64,000 nucleotides of DNA from Beijerinckiaceae bacterium (GTDB taxonomy: Bacteria; Pseudomonadota; Alphaproteobacteria; Rhizobiales; Beijerinckiaceae): NCBI GenBank assembly GCA_027533425.1, contig JAPZUD010000008.1, forward strand, positions 62,001-126,000. Direction: 5' to 3'. How positions within the stretch are numbered: the stretch's first letter is position 1; each line of letters begins with the position of its first letter. This document shows positions 480 through 15,127 of this stretch, piece after piece. Below the pieces are notes generated by a model. That model made no database searches and was not told the origin of the DNA. It saw nothing but the letters and a program-made list of their open reading frames with translations. The position numbers were made by a program, and so were the translations under genes.

Positions 480-839
480 GGGCGTTCTCCTGAACTTGTG
501 CGGCATCGAATTCAGGACCGGACAGACAAAAAGCCGCCCTGCCCCGGACGAGCCGGAGTTGGCGGGGTCTTGCTGGTGCAGGCGACCCGGTTCGATGTTG
601 TCATTGAAGCGGCGGCATGCGCCCCCACTGCGCCGTGTGTAGGCTTCACGAGGCCTTAACCCCAGCGCGCAATTCGGCTGATAGACCAAGGTCGGGAGTC
701 TTTCGTCGGAACCGGCGGCGGGCCGGGCCTCCGCGATACAGAGGCACAGCGCGGAGGGCCCTTGCCGGCGATCGCCATTCGCGACCATGCACGCAAAGAC
801 ATTGCCAGCGCCGGCCAAATCGGGAATAGGAAAAGCCGC
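480..839. other. Intergenic region between MFS gene and tRNA-Thr
   Basis: Non-coding as far as can be seen. It must hold the promoter of the minus-strand transporter (ribosome binding site at about 485-490) and the promoter of the plus-strand tRNA. Open frames across it have no convincing starts or protein character. No repeat or structured RNA was recognised. Confidence 0.5.
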
Positions 840-915
<76 letters not shown>

Positions 916-1037
916 ACTCTCGTCCGCAGACGTCCTCTGCCGACCGTAAACATCTGAAAAACCGATATAAATCAATGATTATGTGTCCGCAGACGTCTGC
1001 GGGCGTCCATTTCCGTGCGCTTGAAGCCAACAGATTT

Positions 1038-1101
1038 GTTGGTATCGTCGTTGGTATCGGAGCCCATACCAACAGGGCGATACCAACAAACGGATACCAA
1101 C
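1038..1101. repeat. Five GTTGGTATC-type repeats in front of the integrase (arm-type or operator sites)
   Basis: GTTGGTATC occurs at 1038-1046 and 1050-1058 (12-bp period). Its complement lies at 1065-1073 (CATACCAAC, one mismatch), 1079-1087 and 1093-1101 (14-bp period). The last copy abuts the integrase ATG at 1102. Two direct and three inverted copies in 64 bases suit arm-type binding sites for the integrase or a recombination directionality factor, which would also repress int. Related GTTGGTC copies sit near the other end of the element. Confidence 0.65.
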
Positions 1102-2352
1102 ATGGCGCTGACCGACGTCGAAATTCGTTCCGCCAAACCGAGAGATTCGATCTACAAGCTGTCCGACGCCCAGGGCCTTCAGCTTTGGGTGATGCCGAAC
1201 GGGTCGAAACTTTGGCGATTGGCTTACCGGTTTGGAGGCAAGCAGAAGCCTCTTGCCATCGGCACTTATCCGGCAGTCAGCCTTTTCGAGGCCCGCAAGA
1301 AGCGCGACGAGGCCAAAGCGCTGTTGGCCTCGGGAGTGGACCCAGGCCAACAGAAGAAGCTCGACAAGCTCACCAAGGCCATCAGCACCGCGACCACCTT
1401 CCAAGCCGTGGCGGAGGAATTCATCGACAAGAAGATCCGCGAGCGAAAGGCGGACACGACCATCTCGAAAAACCGCTACTACCTCGAACTGGCCTATCCG
1501 TTTATCGGCACGCGCCCCGTTGCGGAGATCAAGGCGGCAGAGGTGCTGGCTGTCCTGAAGCATCTGGAGCGGCGCGGCACGCTGGAAACTGCCAAGCGCG
1601 TGCGGGCGACCATCGGCGCCGTGATCCGCTATGCCATTGCCACCACCCGGGCGGAGAGCGACCCCACCACCGCGCTTGCCGGCGCCATCGTCGCGCCTCA
1701 CGTCAAGCACCGCGCCGCGATCCTCGATCCGGTGGCCTTCGGAGGCCTGCTGCGGGCGATTGATTCCTACGATGGGCAACCGACCACCAAGGCAGCCCTC
1801 AACCTCCTGGCGCTTCTTTTCCCCCGACCGGGAGAACTCCGGCAGGCAAGCTGGCGGGAATTTGACCTTCGGAACCGGATCTGGATCATCCCGGCTGCCC
1901 GGACCAAGATGCGACGCGAGCATGAGGTGCCGCTGCCCCGGCAGGCGGTTGAAATCCTCGAATCGCTCCGCCTGATCGTCGGCCGGAGTGAATTGCTGTT
2001 TCCGGGCTTCGGCATGAGCGGCGGGCAAGGCAGGAAGGTCGGGCCGAAACCGATCAGCGAAAACACCCTGAATGGCGCGCTCCGCCGACTCGGCTACCCA
2101 AAGGAAGAGATGTCGGCCCATGGGTTCCGGTCCACCGCCTCGACGCTGCTCAACGCATCTCGCAGGTTTTCGCCCGATGCCATTGAAAACGCTCTCGCGC
2201 ATCAGGACGCAAATGCCATCCGCCGGGCCTATAATCGCGGGAATTCGTGGGACGAGCGGGTCATCATGGCGCAATGGTGGGCGGATTTTCTGGATAGATT
2301 GAAGGCTGGCAGCGAAATTGTCGCGTTTCTCGCGCCTCCGGGACAGCCTTGA
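1102..2352 (+). CDS. Tyrosine-type site-specific integrase, P4/DUF4102 family
   Basis: 416 aa recombinase expected to integrate and excise the island at tRNA-Thr. The N-terminus (MALTDVEIRSAKPRD) is the DUF4102 arm-binding domain of P4-type integrases. A SAM-like core-binding domain follows at about residues 95-195, then the catalytic domain with the first Arg in PGELRQ, the HGFR (HxxR) box, a later His in ALAHQD and the nucleophile Tyr in RRAYNRG. An in-frame ATG at 1015 exists, but starting there would translate the repeat cluster, and family members begin at the MALTD position. The gene looks intact. Confidence 0.93.
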   Translation: MALTDVEIRSAKPRDSIYKLSDAQGLQLWVMPNGSKLWRLAYRFGGKQKPLAIGTYPAVSLFEARKKRDEAKALLASGVDPGQQKKLDKLTKAISTATTFQAVAEEFIDKKIRERKADTTISKNRYYLELAYPFIGTRPVAEIKAAEVLAVLKHLERRGTLETAKRVRATIGAVIRYAIATTRAESDPTTALAGAIVAPHVKHRAAILDPVAFGGLLRAIDSYDGQPTTKAALNLLALLFPRPGELRQASWREFDLRNRIWIIPAARTKMRREHEVPLPRQAVEILESLRLIVGRSELLFPGFGMSGGQGRKVGPKPISENTLNGALRRLGYPKEEMSAHGFRSTASTLLNASRRFSPDAIENALAHQDANAIRRAYNRGNSWDERVIMAQWWADFLDRLKAGSEIVAFLAPPGQP

Positions 2353-4826: not shown

Positions 4827-4885
4827 GCGCGGTTAGGCAGGGAATTTCGGGGGTGGGGCGGTAAGGGGGCCGGAGGCGGAAGGGC

Positions 4886-5066
4886 GGCTTTCGAGCCAAG
4901 TAAACAGAGAAACTGACATTTATTGAGCGCGGTCGTTTGCTATCTCTGGGGGATGGGACGGCCCACTCCTACCGTCCAGTTACCCAGCCCCCAATTGATA
5001 TAGGGACAGTGAGGGCGCTTGTGTGTGGGCTGCCAACAGCCATTTGGGTAGAGCGGAGCGCCATTC
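4886..5066 (-). ncRNA. Candidate DRT3 template RNA with a CACACACA linker
   Basis: It starts right after the drt3b stop on the same strand. RNA 5'-GGCGCU (5062-5057) pairs with AGCGCC (5019-5014). Inside lies a hairpin GGCUG-UUGG-CAGCC (5041-5028), and the bases between hairpin and outer stem (5027-5020) are exactly CACACACA. Downstream, CUGGG (4987-4983) pairs with CCCAG (4950-4946) around GGACGG/CCGUCC (4977-4972 with 4961-4956). A last small hairpin GGCU-CGAA-AGCC spans 4897-4886. No reading frame explains this. DRT3 systems are reported to use an ncRNA with an ACACAC template (from memory). Ends are approximate. Confidence 0.6.
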
Positions 5067-7139
5067 TCAGTATACCTCACGGCTGCGCTTCGCGTCCAGC
5101 TCCTTCCCGAGATTGAATTTATCGCCCCAAGCGGTAAACCAGTGATCGTTAGCGGCCTGAACAGATGCTAGACTTGCTGCATCCAGCTTGAAGATCAGCC
5201 CTATGGCATCCTTGGTGGCAGCGCTGATGTAAGGGCAAACGATGAGGTCGAGAAGCATGATCAGCGTTTCGGCATCATTTGGGCAATGAGCCTTCATGTA
5301 TTCGAGCTTAGCGATGATATGCGCCTCTATGAAGGTTTTCAGCTTCGCATACCGGACCTTGTCCTTGATATAGGAAAGTAGGATCGTGACGGAGAAGTGA
5401 TTCATGAATCCCGTGGGGCGAATGTAATTTCCCGTGCCATCTTCCTCTTTAATCAGGAAATGCCGGAGAAGGACGGAGACTGGCAGCCAGTATTCCCGGC
5501 CGATCTGCGACAATGCGATGAGAAGATAGAGACTCTCGACCTCGCGATGAACGCTCATCGTGTTCTTTTCGAGCTGCTGCATCACATTGTCGTGGACGTA
5601 CTTAAAAAGCAGGTGTTTCTGCTCGTAGGGCAGGCCTTGGGCGTGCAGAAAGTCCACCGAAGCCGCGATCATCCTGCATAGGCGGATAGTGTGATTGACC
5701 TTTGGGCACGCCGAGTATGCGAAAAAGGCAAACTCCATGATGGCCAGCAATGAGTTGGAGAGACGTTTGCGGTCGCGGTCTGACTTGTCGCTCGCGACAT
5801 ACGCCTTGAAGAGCTTCTCGATCTTGTTCTCGGTGATTGCGAACGTGTAGTTCAACAGGTCGCCATAGGTGACGTCTGCCTCCTTGATCGCGGCCTTGTA
5901 CCGGATGATCAGGCGGTTTGCGTTGATTGCGCAGACCAGCTTTTGCTTCGGAGGTTTGGTCGGATCGGCCAGCGGCTCCTCCTCGCAAACTGAATCGATC
6001 TCGGCATTCAGAATGGCCGAGATGCGTTCTTTGGCAATCGTGATCTCGGTAATGATCGGCTTTTGGTAATGCTTGATCTTGGCAGTGTTGATGCTGAGTT
6101 TTTTGCCTTTCAGGATTTCCTGAAGCATCTCGAAAATCTTAAGCTGGGTGGACTCCTCGTTGTAGAAAACGAAGAAGTCATCGACGTACCGGAAAATCTC
6201 GTAATCGACCTTATGGGTTAGATTGGCCACTTCTGCCAACTTCCTGATCAGCTCTGCATCGACCGATTGCAGAATGATCTCGGCAAAAATCCGGGAAAAC
6301 TCGGGGCCTATGACGATACCGTTGGTCTCTTTGTGATTCAGGTTCTGCATAAGGGCGTCGAAACGCCCGCCGAACGTACCCTTCGATGCATCGAGGCTAA
6401 ACTTCGTCTGATCCTTCCCAAGGACGGCCCAAGGAAGCGAGTGAGTATAGATGCTGTCGAAGCACTTGCTCACGTCGATCTGCACCATCGCGTCGTACTT
6501 TTTCTCGCTGCGGTGGTATTTATAAGATTCAAAGAAGCGATGAATATTCCGGTATTTCCGATATACGAAATAGGAACCAAGTTGCTCGTACTCGCGATCC
6601 TCCTCTTCCAGCCCGGCCACGGAATCCAGCCGCTCTTCATGGAGCTTGTCCTTGAAGTAAGCATAGCGTGACACCGAAACCGGGCGGCGGATTGAAAACT
6701 CGCTGACGGAGGTATGATAGATGATCAGCGCGCTGTGGGTGGCATAAAAGCTCGCCATCTCTACCTGATTGCGTGGATGCACGACGCTCAAGGTCCGGCC
6801 GTCAAGATTGTGGGCGACACGAAAATTGAAGGGGATGGTCGCCATCTGGCATTTTTTGAGAGGGACCGATCTGCGGGTTTTCCGCTTACCCCACTCGGTC
6901 ACGACCTCAGGGGTGATAACGGCGGCGGGATCGATACCGAACAGAAGCCGCATGGTTTGATCCAGAGCATCCGTCTCGCAAATCCAGCGCAACTGACCCT
7001 TTTCGATCTCGATGCCGTTGTCGCGCAGGAAGCGGTAGTAGCCCCGGTTTGAAAAGGTCGGAGGCACCTCGAATGGCAGCATGTCGGTCAGGACCGACCG
7101 CTGCTTCCGGTGTGTGAGCGAGACGCGACGCTTAGCCAT
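5067..7139 (-). CDS. drt3b: Reverse transcriptase Drt3b-like (UG8 class), DRT3 anti-phage system
   Basis: 690 aa RT. Palm motif A is IDVSKCFDSIY (Asp222), motif B NGIVIGPEFSRIFAEIIL (273-290) and motif C RYVDDFF (YVDD, Asp320/Asp321). The catalytic aspartates are intact. The long C-terminal half (about 380-690) is mainly helical with no maturase, endonuclease or nitrilase domain. Length and pairing with a shorter RT fit Drt3b (UG8) of defense-associated RT type 3, assigned by architecture and not by alignment. The start overlaps the drt3a stop by 8 nt, implying translational coupling. The candidate ncRNA follows its stop. Base composition is poorer in GC than the flanking chromosome. Confidence 0.78.
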   Translation of the reverse strand: MAKRRVSLTHRKQRSVLTDMLPFEVPPTFSNRGYYRFLRDNGIEIEKGQLRWICETDALDQTMRLLFGIDPAAVITPEVVTEWGKRKTRRSVPLKKCQMATIPFNFRVAHNLDGRTLSVVHPRNQVEMASFYATHSALIIYHTSVSEFSIRRPVSVSRYAYFKDKLHEERLDSVAGLEEEDREYEQLGSYFVYRKYRNIHRFFESYKYHRSEKKYDAMVQIDVSKCFDSIYTHSLPWAVLGKDQTKFSLDASKGTFGGRFDALMQNLNHKETNGIVIGPEFSRIFAEIILQSVDAELIRKLAEVANLTHKVDYEIFRYVDDFFVFYNEESTQLKIFEMLQEILKGKKLSINTAKIKHYQKPIITEITIAKERISAILNAEIDSVCEEEPLADPTKPPKQKLVCAINANRLIIRYKAAIKEADVTYGDLLNYTFAITENKIEKLFKAYVASDKSDRDRKRLSNSLLAIMEFAFFAYSACPKVNHTIRLCRMIAASVDFLHAQGLPYEQKHLLFKYVHDNVMQQLEKNTMSVHREVESLYLLIALSQIGREYWLPVSVLLRHFLIKEEDGTGNYIRPTGFMNHFSVTILLSYIKDKVRYAKLKTFIEAHIIAKLEYMKAHCPNDAETLIMLLDLIVCPYISAATKDAIGLIFKLDAASLASVQAANDHWFTAWGDKFNLGKELDAKRSREVY

Positions 7140-8478
7140 GTTTCCAGGCCCTCACGATAACCTGCAACTCGCGTGTGCTGAAATTATGATAGCGGCGCTG
7201 CGCAAAGCCGGTCGAAAATTTCAACTTCTTCAATTGTTTTTGCAGGCTGCTGCTCTTGAGCTTATCGATAAGCACCTTCAGCTCCTTGTCGAGCTGATCA
7301 AAGTCAGACAGGTCTGTCGCGATTGAATTGTTATAATATATACCGGTGACGGCCCGCGACTTGCTGTTTGAAAGGCGCGTGTTGCCCGTCAAGAACTTGA
7401 GGCGCGCGGCAAGCTCCCGGTACGCGCGCCTTGGACCAAGCGGACGCTGCTTCCAGTAGGCCTCGAACGCGGCATTCATCCGTGCGCGATATTTATCGAT
7501 CTTCGCCGCGCTCGGACCAATCTCGAATTTCACGCTGGTCAGGCTGAAACGATAGCCCAGATACTCAAAGGCCTTGGGAGCAGTATCGGCCAAGGCGAAT
7601 TCATGCGTTTTTGCCGGGTTGTGCGTGAGCGCATTATCATCGAATATTGCGATGATCCGGTCCTTAAACGAGCCGAGACTATTGCCTGCTGGCGGTCGGG
7701 CAAAAACTGCGACAATGTCATCGACAAACCGGCAGTAGAGAACCATGCCGGGAATTGCCCGGATCGCGTTATCGACCGGTCGCAGATACAATTCGGCCAG
7801 ATAAGCACTGATTCCGACACCGCGCGGAACACCCTTCGCCGCGCCAGATTTCGCGCCGTATGAGTCCAGCACTTGCTTGACGTATTTCTTCGATGCGGGG
7901 CTCAAGAGCTGATCGCGATCCAGCTTCTCCACCAGACGCTTGCGGTCAATGCTCTCATAGAACGACGAGATATCGGTACGGACCAGCTCGAAAGGAAAGC
8001 TGCTGCCGAGCATGTCCCGAAGCTGGCATACTAAGTCGTGTCGGTTTGCTTGTTTGACGCCGTAAATGTGGTGAATGTTTCGCTGGAGCTGCTTGATGAC
8101 GAAGAAAGTCTCGGGCTCTGCATCAATGCAGTATACAGGTTTTCCCTGTGGCCCGGCCTTCTGCGACAAGTCGATCTTGAAGCTCGGCTTTAGGACCTTA
8201 TGGCTGATATCATCCATCAGGTCATCGACGGCCGCTGACTTGCTGGCCTTTAAGGCGGCGAGTTCGGATTTCAACGTCGCCAGCGTCGCCGTGAAAACGT
8301 CGGCGGCCATCGTTGCTTGGAGTGCGCGATGGTCCCGAATGTCTTGCACCTTGTTGCGAACGGCCTGGGTCAGCGGTTCGAGCGTCGGAAAATATCGCCC
8401 AGCGAGGTCGAGCCCCTTGCGGTTCTCGGCATCGTAGATGCGGCGAAAATTATCCGCAGTGAACATCTGATCGAGCAT
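7132..8478 (-). CDS. drt3a: Reverse transcriptase Drt3a-like (UG3 class), DRT3 anti-phage system
   Basis: 448 aa RT, first gene of the two-gene operon. Motif A is VRTDISSFYESI (Asp169), motif B KGVPRGVGISAYLAELYL (215-232) and motif C YCRFVDDIV (FVDD, Asp253/Asp254). An N-terminal helical region (1-110) precedes the fingers and a C-terminal basic thumb-like part ends in KKLKFSTGF and a Trp-Lys-His-Gly tail. There is no group II intron domain X or endonuclease, and no retron msr/msd arrangement. Two RTs in tandem plus an adjacent structured RNA is the DRT3 layout. A sigma70-like promoter lies about 130 bases upstream of the ATG at 8478. Confidence 0.78.
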   Translation of the reverse strand: MLDQMFTADNFRRIYDAENRKGLDLAGRYFPTLEPLTQAVRNKVQDIRDHRALQATMAADVFTATLATLKSELAALKASKSAAVDDLMDDISHKVLKPSFKIDLSQKAGPQGKPVYCIDAEPETFFVIKQLQRNIHHIYGVKQANRHDLVCQLRDMLGSSFPFELVRTDISSFYESIDRKRLVEKLDRDQLLSPASKKYVKQVLDSYGAKSGAAKGVPRGVGISAYLAELYLRPVDNAIRAIPGMVLYCRFVDDIVAVFARPPAGNSLGSFKDRIIAIFDDNALTHNPAKTHEFALADTAPKAFEYLGYRFSLTSVKFEIGPSAAKIDKYRARMNAAFEAYWKQRPLGPRRAYRELAARLKFLTGNTRLSNSKSRAVTGIYYNNSIATDLSDFDQLDKELKVLIDKLKSSSLQKQLKKLKFSTGFAQRRYHNFSTRELQVIVRAWKHG

Positions 8479-13438: not shown

Positions 13439-13640
13439 GAACCGAACCGCTTTGTCGTCAACAGGAAATGTCTGGGTTTTTCCTAAGGCTCACCCTCGAC
13501 CACGGAAAGACCCGACAGGAAGTTTTCTGGACGAGAGGATTTCTGGCAAAAGGTCTTTGGACCAGAGGCGACGGCCCGGAACCCGCGGCCAAGCGAAGCG
13601 CCTTGACGGCGGCGCAGACTGTGCTAGCCGTGGTCCTCGC

Positions 13641-13820
13641 GGAAGAGTTCAGCCGGTCCGCCGGTTGACGCCGAAGGAGCAACCGCCCCGGAAACTCTCA
13701 GGCCCCGAGACCGCACCCGTTTTTGACTCTGAAAAGTGGAGCAGCCGCTCCCGCCGATGGTGTAAGCCGCGACCTGACGAACAGGGCCGGTGATGCTCTC
13801 AGGCCAATGACAGAGGGGGC
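13641..13820 (+). promoter_or_regulatory. Tandem glycine riboswitch upstream of dadA
   Basis: Two glycine aptamers in series. The first has GACGCCGAAGGAGCAACC followed by AACTCTCAGGCC; the second has TGATGCTCTCAGGCC and AATGACAGAGGGGG, the hallmark conserved blocks of gcvT-type glycine riboswitches, separated by a short linker near 13725. The end lies about 40 bases before the dadA ATG. It probably turns the gene on when glycine is abundant. Boundaries are by eye. Confidence 0.88.
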
Positions 13821-13861: not shown

Positions 13862-15127
13862 ATGTCTGCTTCCCGTTCTGACTCCGTCGCCGTGATCGGC
13901 GCCGGCATTACCGGCATCACGACCGCCTATTCCCTCATGAAGCGCGGCTGCCGCGTCACCGTCTTCGATCGCCAGCCCTATGCGGCGATGGAAACCTCCT
14001 TCGCCAATGGCGGCCAGCTCTCGGCCTCGAATGCCGAGGTCTGGAACAGCTGGGCCACCGTGCTCAAGGGCATCAAGTGGATGATGGAGCCCGGCGCACC
14101 GCTGCTCGTCAACCCGCGCCCCTCCTGGCACAAGATCTCCTGGATGGGCGAGTTCATCGCCTCGATCCCGAAATACGAGGAGAACACCGTCACCACCGCC
14201 CGCCTCGCCATCGAGGCCCGTGCCTATCTCAAGGCCATGGCGGAAGCGGAGGGCATCGATTTCGACTGCGAAACCCGCGGCATCCTGCATTTCTACGAAT
14301 CGAAGAAGGACTTCGACGCCGCCGCCCGCGTCAGCGCCCTGCTGGCCAAGGGCGGTCTCGAGCGCCGCGCCGTCACACCGTCGGAGATCAAATCCATCGA
14401 GCCGGCCCTGCGCGGTGACTATTACGGCGGCTTCTACACCCCGTCGGATTTCACCGGCGACATCCACAAATTCACGATCGGCCTCGCCAAAGCCTGCGAG
14501 CGGCAGGGCGTGTCGATGCGCTTCTCGACCGAGATCCTCTCGACTGCCGCAGGCGGGAACGATGTGACGCTTGTCACCCGTTCCACCGAACCGACGCTGG
14601 ATGGCAGCCAGCATCCGGAGCAGGTCGAGACCTTCGACAAGGTGATCGTCTGTGGCGGCGTGATGTCCCGCGCGATTGCCAGCGGCTTCGGGGACCGCGT
14701 CAATGTCTATCCCGTGAAGGGCTATTCGATCACGGTCAGCTTGGCCGAAAAGGCCGACCAGGAGGCCGCACCCTGGGTCAGCCTGCTGGACGACAAGGCC
14801 AAGATCGTCACCAGCCGCCTGGGGGCAACGCGCTTCCGCGTGGCGGGCACGGCCGAGTTCAACGGCTATAACCGCGATATCCGCGCCGCCCGCATCGCCC
14901 CGCTCATCGCCTGGTGCCGGGTGCATTTCCCCGGCATGAGCACGCGCCAGAGCGTGCCCTGGGCCGGCCTTCGCCCGATGATGCCGGACATGATGCCCCG
15001 CGTCATGCGGGGCCGGAACCCGCGCGTGTTCTACAATACCGGCCATGGCCATCTCGGCTGGACGCTGTCTGCCGCCACGGCGGATGCCGTCGGCGCGCTG
15101 GTCACCGCCCGCCCGAACGCGGCGTGA
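13862..15127 (+). CDS. dadA: D-amino acid dehydrogenase small subunit
   Basis: 421 aa FAD-dependent oxidoreductase of the DAO family that deaminates D-amino acids (classically D-alanine) at the inner membrane and feeds electrons to the quinone pool. Seen: Rossmann motif VAVIGAGITGITTAYSLMKRG (about 10-30), family blocks SFANGGQLSASNAEVWNSW and NTGHGHLGWTLSAATAD near the C-terminus. Length matches DadA. It stands alone with no alanine racemase beside it. The glycine riboswitch directly upstream suggests its real role may include glycine or is tied to glycine excess. Confidence 0.9.
   Translation: MSASRSDSVAVIGAGITGITTAYSLMKRGCRVTVFDRQPYAAMETSFANGGQLSASNAEVWNSWATVLKGIKWMMEPGAPLLVNPRPSWHKISWMGEFIASIPKYEENTVTTARLAIEARAYLKAMAEAEGIDFDCETRGILHFYESKKDFDAAARVSALLAKGGLERRAVTPSEIKSIEPALRGDYYGGFYTPSDFTGDIHKFTIGLAKACERQGVSMRFSTEILSTAAGGNDVTLVTRSTEPTLDGSQHPEQVETFDKVIVCGGVMSRAIASGFGDRVNVYPVKGYSITVSLAEKADQEAAPWVSLLDDKAKIVTSRLGATRFRVAGTAEFNGYNRDIRAARIAPLIAWCRVHFPGMSTRQSVPWAGLRPMMPDMMPRVMRGRNPRVFYNTGHGHLGWTLSAATADAVGALVTARPNAA

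What the first reader, a model, noticed from the sequence alone, without database searches (positions are those of the whole stretch)
5014..5062. Structured non-coding RNA with a pure CACACACA linker directly after drt3b
Read 5' to 3' on the minus strand: GGCGCU stem strand, 15-nt linker, perfect hairpin GGCUG-UUGG-CAGCC, then exactly CACACACA, then the closing strand AGCGCC. The only single-stranded bases on that side of the stem are an AC repeat, which is what a (GT)n-templating RNA needs. A second nested stem-loop (4946-4987) follows. No coding frame accounts for this, and the operon's upstream region has no such repeat.
Basis: partly seen in the sequence, partly recalled or inferred. Interest (0 to 1): 0.9.

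Follow-up and report, generated by a model that had tools for sequence, protein, structure and literature searches.

The report
Template RNA of DRT3 phage defence
Right after two reverse-transcriptase genes of a bacterial anti-phage system lies a small folded RNA whose exposed CACACACA stretch is almost certainly the template for GT-repeat DNA; such RNAs are known, but this branch of the family has its own fold and what looks like its own promoter.

Summary
Window 5067-7139(-) and 7132-8478(-) are Drt3b and Drt3a. A structured RNA follows directly: a covariance model from 17 distant relatives, window excluded, finds it at 5067-4947(-), E 5.9e-20. ACACAC follows drt3b in 89 of 89 compared loci of its clade.

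A downstream ACACAC RNA that templates poly(dTdG) is already published for E. coli DRT3 (PMC13174585), so the kind is known. The variant is new as far as I could check: the two Drt3b proteins with solved structures fall outside this clade, and my RNA model finds nothing convincing in their group.

Two further features: a covarying kissing pseudoknot, 5056-5051 with 4968-4963, 99.5% paired over 37 loci and confirmed out of sample; and a conserved sigma-70-like promoter in the last drt3b codons, its -10 box overlapping the codon of the predicted DNA-priming tyrosine and the stop. Transcription, binding and templating are inferred, not shown. Single-sequence folding energy gives no support (z 0.22).

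The parts
7132..8478 (-). drt3a: 448-aa reverse transcriptase, predicted to copy the RNA template into poly(dTdG)
   Evidence: NCBIfam Drt3a 410 bits, cut-off 200; PADLOC Drt3a E 5.3e-121
5067..7139 (-). drt3b: 690-aa reverse transcriptase, predicted protein-primed and protein-templated poly(dCdA) maker
   Evidence: NCBIfam Drt3b 722 bits, cut-off 350; E24, R283, YVDD 318-321 and Y690 align with EcoDRT3b E22, R241, YVDD 276-279, Y666
5069..5098 (-). promoter-like element inside the last codons of drt3b: TGGACG (5098-5093), 18 nt, TATACT (5074-5069); start of transcription expected near 5062 (spacing rule recalled)
   Evidence: scan of 4850-5250 (1 found; shuffles mean 0.1, sd 0.4); excess synonymous conservation; GTA 74 of 86 against 16.8 expected, site of 9 of 12 at the same fixed place in 71 of 89 loci
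4956..5062 (-). the DRT3 template RNA, core as conserved (P1 to P4); true ends not known
   Evidence: hold-out covariance model R1, 81.4 bits, E 5.9e-20, 5067-4947
5058..5062 (-). P1, 5' strand (pairs with 5014-5018)
   Evidence: 98.9% of cells paired, 3 of 5 pairs with compensatory change over 37 loci
5014..5018 (-). P1, 3' strand
5051..5056 (-). pseudoknot, 5' strand CCGCUC (pairs with 4963-4968)
   Evidence: 99.5% paired, 5 of 6 pairs with compensatory change; best-ranked in a scan of the linker against the 3' half; out-of-sample swap test
4963..4968 (-). pseudoknot, 3' strand GAGUGG in the loop of P4
5028..5041 (-). P2 hairpin GGCUG-UUGG-CAGCC directly 5' of the template; likely template boundary
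   Evidence: 98.9% paired over 37 loci; a stem of this kind in 79 of 89 loci, but also at 303 of 880 random places
5020..5027 (-). template CACACACA, copied to TGTGTGTG
   Evidence: ACACAC in 89 of 89 loci, 25-76 nt after the stop
4983..5011 (-). P3, variable hairpin region
   Evidence: about 82% of cells paired
4956..4977 (-). P4 hairpin GGACGG-loop-CCGUCC whose loop holds the pseudoknot partner
   Evidence: 97.3% paired, 5 of 6 pairs with compensatory change

Best explanation
This is the template RNA of a DRT3 antiphage system. A roughly 110-nt RNA, probably started from its own promoter in the last codons of drt3b, folds with P1 closing a loop that exposes CACACACA. P2 sits directly 5' of the template and P4 docks by a kissing pseudoknot next to P1. 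Drt3a binds it and copies the CA repeat into TG repeats. At P2 it stalls, and the product slips back in register and is extended again, giving poly(dTdG). Drt3b, primed on its last tyrosine, makes poly(dCdA) without a nucleic-acid template, and the strands pair. Shown here: conserved position, template, stems, pseudoknot and codon bias, and the conserved catalytic, templating and priming residues. Inferred from the published relatives: binding, templating, product and defence. Inferred with less support: the promoter's activity, P2 as boundary, and the role of the pseudoknot. The confidence given is for the identity as DRT3 template RNA, not for every step.
For: Drt3a and Drt3b above curated cut-offs. 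Hold-out covariance model finds the window and 82 of 90 clade sources at E 0.01 or better, 17 of which built it. Structure: 93.8% of cells paired against 79.9% in shuffles, 25 pairs with changes on both sides against 17.6. Pseudoknot. ACACAC 89 of 89. Drt3a directly upstream by a strict rule in 79 of 82 loci with enough DNA; the other 3 have a match upstream on the same strand, that of L025 partial; 6 more had too little DNA. Residues used by EcoDRT3b for dA/dC gating and priming kept in 88 of 88, 88 of 88 and 89 of 89. Published mechanism in E. coli: PMC13174585, section 7 in full, half of the figure legends, and passages. Promoter signs.
Against: No expression data here. Single-sequence folding energy is not exceptional. 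P2 is not universal: 10 of 89 loci fail the stem rule, four of them with no stem at all (L058, L084, L096, L100). Eight of 90 sources are not found at E 0.01 (L005, L007, L045, L062, L086, L092, L095, L097; L045's contig ends inside drt3b). Five of 82 score under 5 for the pseudoknot (L076, L080, L081, L096, L100). No terminator-like site was found in window 4850-5250 and the window has no U-rich tail after P4; such a tail is seen in 33 of 82. Loci are related by descent, so counts are not independent events.
Confidence: 0.92

Rival explanations
1. The element is only the 3' untranslated end or terminator of the drt3 operon, and the AC stretch is incidental.
For: It lies at the operon's end, and P4 is followed by a U-rich tail in 33 of 82 loci. 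Single-sequence energy is ordinary and one CACACACA in 64 kb is not rare.
Against: ACACAC invariant in 89 of 89 while its flanks vary; pseudoknot and P1 covary; no terminator-like site in the window itself; in EcoDRT3 the ACACAC segment is needed for defence (PMC13174585, passage).
Confidence: 0.03
2. It is a template RNA (so nested in the best explanation), but made only by trimming the operon mRNA; the conserved codons near the stop serve RNA folding or processing, not a promoter.
For: P1 starts only about 5 nt after the stop (68 of 82 loci at 5-6 nt), so operon transcripts that run on would contain it. The excess synonymous conservation also covers codons between the two hexamers. The clade includes Bacteroidota, which use other promoter hexamers (recalled).
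Against: The conserved letters match TTGACA-18-TATAAT, with GTA 74 of 86 against 16.8 expected and GAC 68 of 73 against 28.8. The -10 box sits at the spacing that puts the start at P1's first base (rule recalled).
Confidence: 0.3
3. The RNA templates a different product, or acts mainly as a scaffold or sensor rather than a template.
For: The published DRT3 RNA is also described as a scaffold of a 6:6:6 complex (review PMC13314766, passages). The pseudoknot suggests a role beyond presenting the template.
Against: In the aligned stretch around it only the AC core is invariant in sequence, the pattern expected of a fixed template.
Confidence: 0.05

Closest known systems
EcoDRT3 ncRNA (PMC13174585; Drt3b structure 26CZ)
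   Same: Encoded in cis after drt3b, ACACAC template in a loop next to a stem-loop, same two RT families, same Drt3b gating and priming residues.
   Different: EcoDRT3b matches L017 over all 667 residues (1308.7 bits to 26CZ), in the other group of Drt3b. Template 92 and 129 nt after the stop in L016 and L017 against 25-76 nt here. Model R1 finds nothing convincing there. L017's last codons and stop do not form the promoter-like letters, by inspection. The words pseudoknot and kissing do not occur in that paper's main text.
DRT3 of Deng et al., Science 2026 (paper not held; taken here to be structures 9Z6Y/9Z6Z, an inference from the molecule name)
   Same: Drt3a, Drt3b and ncRNA with ACACAC, 6:6:6 complex (as told in two reviews, passages).
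   Different: The Drt3b of 9Z6Y matches L109 (1308.8 bits), again outside the clade of the window. Model R1 has no hit in L109.
DRT10 and DRT9 ncRNAs
   Same: [quoted passage not shown] repeat addition by realignment (DRT10, PMC12632851 passages).
   Different: Different RT groups; DRT10 templates are variable in sequence, here the core is invariant.
DRT2 ncRNA
   Same: A pseudoknotted RNA used as template by a defence RT (start of abstract of PMC12039810 in a search listing).
   Different: The product codes for a protein by rolling circle (review passage); no dinucleotide template.
Telomerase RNA
   Same: Short template, boundary element formed by a stem-loop or pseudoknot, repeat addition (passage in PMC12632851).
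   Different: Analogy of working only; no homology tested.

Membership tests
DRT3 antiphage system | Drt3a (UG3) and Drt3b (UG8) adjacent in one operon | tested here: met
   NCBIfam equivalogs 410 (cut-off 200) and 722 bits (cut-off 350), overlapping genes
DRT3 antiphage system | Drt3b dA/dC gating residues, catalytic YVDD and priming tyrosine | tested here: met
   E24, R115, R283, Y318-V-D-D321, Y690 in the window
DRT3 antiphage system | ncRNA after drt3b with ACACAC in a loop | tested here: met
   (sequence and structure only; no transcript seen)
DRT3 antiphage system | makes poly(dTdG) and poly(dCdA), protects against phage | not testable with these tools
   needs cells or purified parts
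EcoDRT3-type ncRNA (same RNA fold) | sequence-structure homology with the RNA of the characterised systems | tested here: not met
   Model R1: no match at E 10 or better in L016/L017 with default filters; with filters off seven weak matches in nine loci, best E 3.3; none in L109, and one 20-nt fragment (E 0.24) in the 19 loci. The published covariance model itself was not available.
Compact-type DRT3 ncRNA (this clade) | P1, pseudoknot with P4 loop, template 25-76 nt after drt3b stop | tested here: met
Rfam families | match to any of 4227 models at the gathering score | tested here: not met
   only 2 tRNAs and 2 glycine aptamers in the window, none here

The most novel reading that the evidence does not exclude
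A second architecture of DRT3 template RNA, not yet described: it serves a clade of DRT3 that is separate from the two systems with solved Drt3b structures and is found in at least six phyla. The terminal hairpin's loop makes a kissing pseudoknot beside P1, so the template is held in a telomerase-like pseudoknotted core. The RNA has its own promoter whose -10 box is made of the codon for Drt3b's DNA-priming tyrosine and the stop codon, so one stretch of DNA encodes the primer of one strand and starts the template of the other.
Probability: 0.6. Interest if true: 0.68.

Novelty: new variant of a known kind. Interest (0 to 1): 0.55.

Why it matters
DRT3 is one of the few systems reported to make DNA on a protein template, and both Drt3b structures found lie outside this clade. 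The clade here spreads widely (Drt3b over 80% identical to the window's in several orders) and has its own RNA fold with a strongly covarying pseudoknot. It gives an independent system for asking how the RNA sets the repeat, what stops synthesis, and whether the template RNA is regulated apart from the enzymes. The covariance model makes such systems findable and the pseudoknot directly testable by swap mutants.

Tried and rejected
Energy of the single fold: no support. A second pseudoknot by eye, linker UACCC with GGGUA at 4985-4981: present in the window and close kin, but not among the 14 best helices printed by the scan over 37 loci; dropped. Attachment site of a mobile element: no exact direct repeat of 15 nt or more of window 831-1009 in the window. 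Published covariance model not available; Deng et al. not held; Mestre et al. 2022 not held. P2 as a universal boundary: not universal. The stem rule itself is loose, since 303 of 880 random places pass it.

What was dropped before counts: the 89-locus set is 79 of the 80 loci (L045 left out, contig ends inside drt3b), 4 viral loci (L098-L101), the window, L005, L007, L013-L015. Of the 23 viral loci, 7 went to the other group and 12 were not read downstream because the match does not reach the protein's last residue. L003 and L004 (short matches) were not read downstream. A4 holds 37 and A5 17 chosen loci, all of A5 being in A4. The out-of-sample pseudoknot test on 24 loci is a hand-listed distant part of the 45 aligned loci not in A4; the 45 give 5.92 against 4.03. 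The synonymous test used 24 of 35 close loci, those that align without gaps over the last 201 codons. L050 (broken frame) was left out of the tree and is a gap at all listed residues but the final tyrosine.

Full report
What is there. On the minus strand two overlapping genes run 8478-7132 and 7139-5067. They are Drt3a and Drt3b by curated NCBIfam cut-offs (410 against 200 bits, 722 against 350) and by PADLOC. The stop codon of drt3b is 5069-5067. Its letters and coordinates are right. No ORF of 80 aa or more overlaps it, and Rfam has no match there at the gathering scores.

Is it more than chance? Taken alone, hardly: the folding energy is ordinary (z +0.22) and one CACACACA in 64 kb is expected 0.29 times. 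Comparison settles it. For 89 loci of the window's Drt3b clade the 300 nt after the stop were read (what was left out is told under Tried and rejected). All 89 hold ACACAC, at +25 to +76. In the same loci 73 of 6757 100-nt windows elsewhere on that strand hold it. The bases on either side vary; the six do not.

Structure. In an alignment of 37 chosen loci the 31 pairs of P1, P2, P3, P4 and a pseudoknot are formed in 93.8% of cells (79.9% in shuffles), with 25 pairs changed on both sides (17.6 in shuffles; 0 of 500 reach it); sliding the partners by 1-3 columns drops pairing to 37-50%. The pseudoknot joins the six bases after P1's 5' strand (window CCGCUC 5056-5051) to the loop of P4 (GAGUGG 4968-4963). 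I first saw it by eye; it then came out on top of a scan of three-pair helices between linker and 3' half. It is paired in 99.5% of cells with 5 of 6 pairs compensated, though the count of such pairs alone is reached by 61 of 500 shuffles. Out of sample, in 24 hand-listed distant loci used in neither alignment (22 distinct pairs), cognate partners score 5.75 against 4.00 (sd 0.20) for swapped partners, 0 of 2000 as high; all 45 aligned loci outside A4 give 5.92 against 4.03. Examples: UCAGGC/GCCUGA in E. coli, UCACCC/GGGUGA in Halomonas, CAGUCC/GGACUG in Bacteroidota. Over all 82 aligned loci, 77 reach a score of 5.

Hold-out test. A covariance model from 17 loci, all with Drt3b at most 46% identical to the window's and the window left out, finds the window at 5067-4947(-) with 81.4 bits, E 5.9e-20; the next hit in 64 kb has E 1.2. 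It is the only hit in the 3.75-Mb genome at E 0.001, where 150 of 578 first-look candidates were scored. Of 90 clade sources 82 are found at E 0.01 or better, 17 of them in the model. P1 starts 5 or 6 nt after the stop in 68 of 82. The eight not found are named under evidence against.

The proteins. EcoDRT3b (structure 26CZ) matches L017 over all 667 residues (1308.7 bits). Its residues E22, R71, D182, R241, YVDD and Y666 (PMC13174585 section 7, read in full) are found in L017 at those numbers. The window has E24, R115, D222, R283, YVDD 318-321 and Y690. In the 89-locus set E22, R71 and R241 are kept in 88 of 88 (L050 is a gap) and the final Y in 89 of 89; V277 departs in two. Drt3a lies directly upstream by a strict rule in 79 of 82 loci with enough DNA; the other three have a match upstream on the same strand, one of them partial.

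Promoter in the gene's end. Over 24 close loci the last ten codons of drt3b show excess same-codon use (+0.216 after allowing for amino acid; the best of 157 other ten-codon windows is +0.115). A simple scan of 4850-5250 finds TGGACG-18-TATACT at 5098-5069 (1 found, 0.1 in shuffles). The valine before the final tyrosine is GTA in 74 of 86 loci (16.8 expected from each gene's own usage), and the aspartate at codon -10 is GAC in 68 of 73 (28.8 expected). A site of at least 9 of 12 lies at the same place in 71 of 89. By the usual spacing (recalled) transcription would start near 5062, P1's first base. So the -10 box TATACT overlaps the valine codon, the codon of the predicted priming tyrosine Y690 and the first base of the stop. 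That it works as a promoter is inference; codons between the two hexamers are conserved too, and related descent inflates all such counts.

Mechanism. Shown by others for E. coli: Drt3a with its ncRNA makes poly(dTdG), mutations in the ACACAC segment abolish product and defence, and Drt3b makes poly(dCdA) from its tyrosine with E22 and R241 as gates (PMC13174585; section 7 in full, part of the legends, other passages, except 12). Read-through into the stem-loop next to the template is linked there to product truncation. In DRT10 the stem-loop just upstream of the template is proposed to set the 5' boundary (PMC12632851, passages). Here P2 abuts the template in the same way, so the same role is likely, but some members have no P2.

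What is known and what is not. A DRT3 ncRNA with ACACAC after drt3b is published, so the kind is known. The window's clade is separate: a tree of 103 Drt3b rows puts the 15 rows of the other group, including L017 (26CZ) and L109 (9Z6Y, 1308.8 bits), on one side of a branch with 100 support and the 88 clade rows on the other (quick method, unrooted, with long branches among the 15). In the 15 loci of the other group the template lies 92 nt or more after the stop, and the RNA model finds nothing convincing there. The clade's rows come from Pseudomonadota, Bacteroidota, Verrucomicrobiota, Acidobacteriota, Margulisiibacteriota and Nitrospirota (some are assembled from metagenomes). I found no mention of this fold, the pseudoknot or the embedded promoter of DRT3 in what I saw of the held papers (searches, of which mostly listings and abstract starts were seen; find). 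Deng et al. and Mestre et al. could not be read, nor the figures or supplement of PMC13174585, whose model covers 32 to 41 systems and might include some of this clade.

Verdict. The finding is correct and useful for annotation, but not a new kind: a new variant of the DRT3 template RNA, with a new pseudoknot and a probable promoter inside the gene.

Noticed in passing
window 840-2352: tRNA-Thr followed by a phage-type integrase next to the DRT3 operon; no exact direct repeat of the tRNA region (15 nt or more) in the window, so the element's other end was not found.
   Followed up: partly
window 13630-13815: Two tandem glycine riboswitch aptamers upstream of an ORF at 13862-15127.
   Followed up: no
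many of L018-L050: Drt3b 80-96% identical to the window's in Sphingomonadales, Rhizobiales, Acetobacteraceae and Burkholderiales: wide recent transfer of the operon with its RNA.
   Followed up: partly
L058, L084, L096, L100 downstream of drt3b: RNAs of the clade without any P2 hairpin before the template; others (L076, L078, L087, L090) have a much longer stretch there.
   Followed up: partly
L016 against L017, end of drt3b: L016's annotated Drt3b (679 aa) ends differently from L017's (667 aa, Tyr-Glu end); whether the priming tyrosine survives there is unclear.
   Followed up: no
window 5090-5085 (AAGCGC in drt3b, minus strand): A copy of most of P1's 3' strand in the last codons of drt3b could pair with P1's 5' strand in the operon mRNA and compete with the RNA fold.
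   Followed up: no
L006 (plasmid CP083496.1): drt3b annotated in two pieces, while nine E. coli chromosomes carry the same element with drt3a and drt3b annotated whole.
   Followed up: partly
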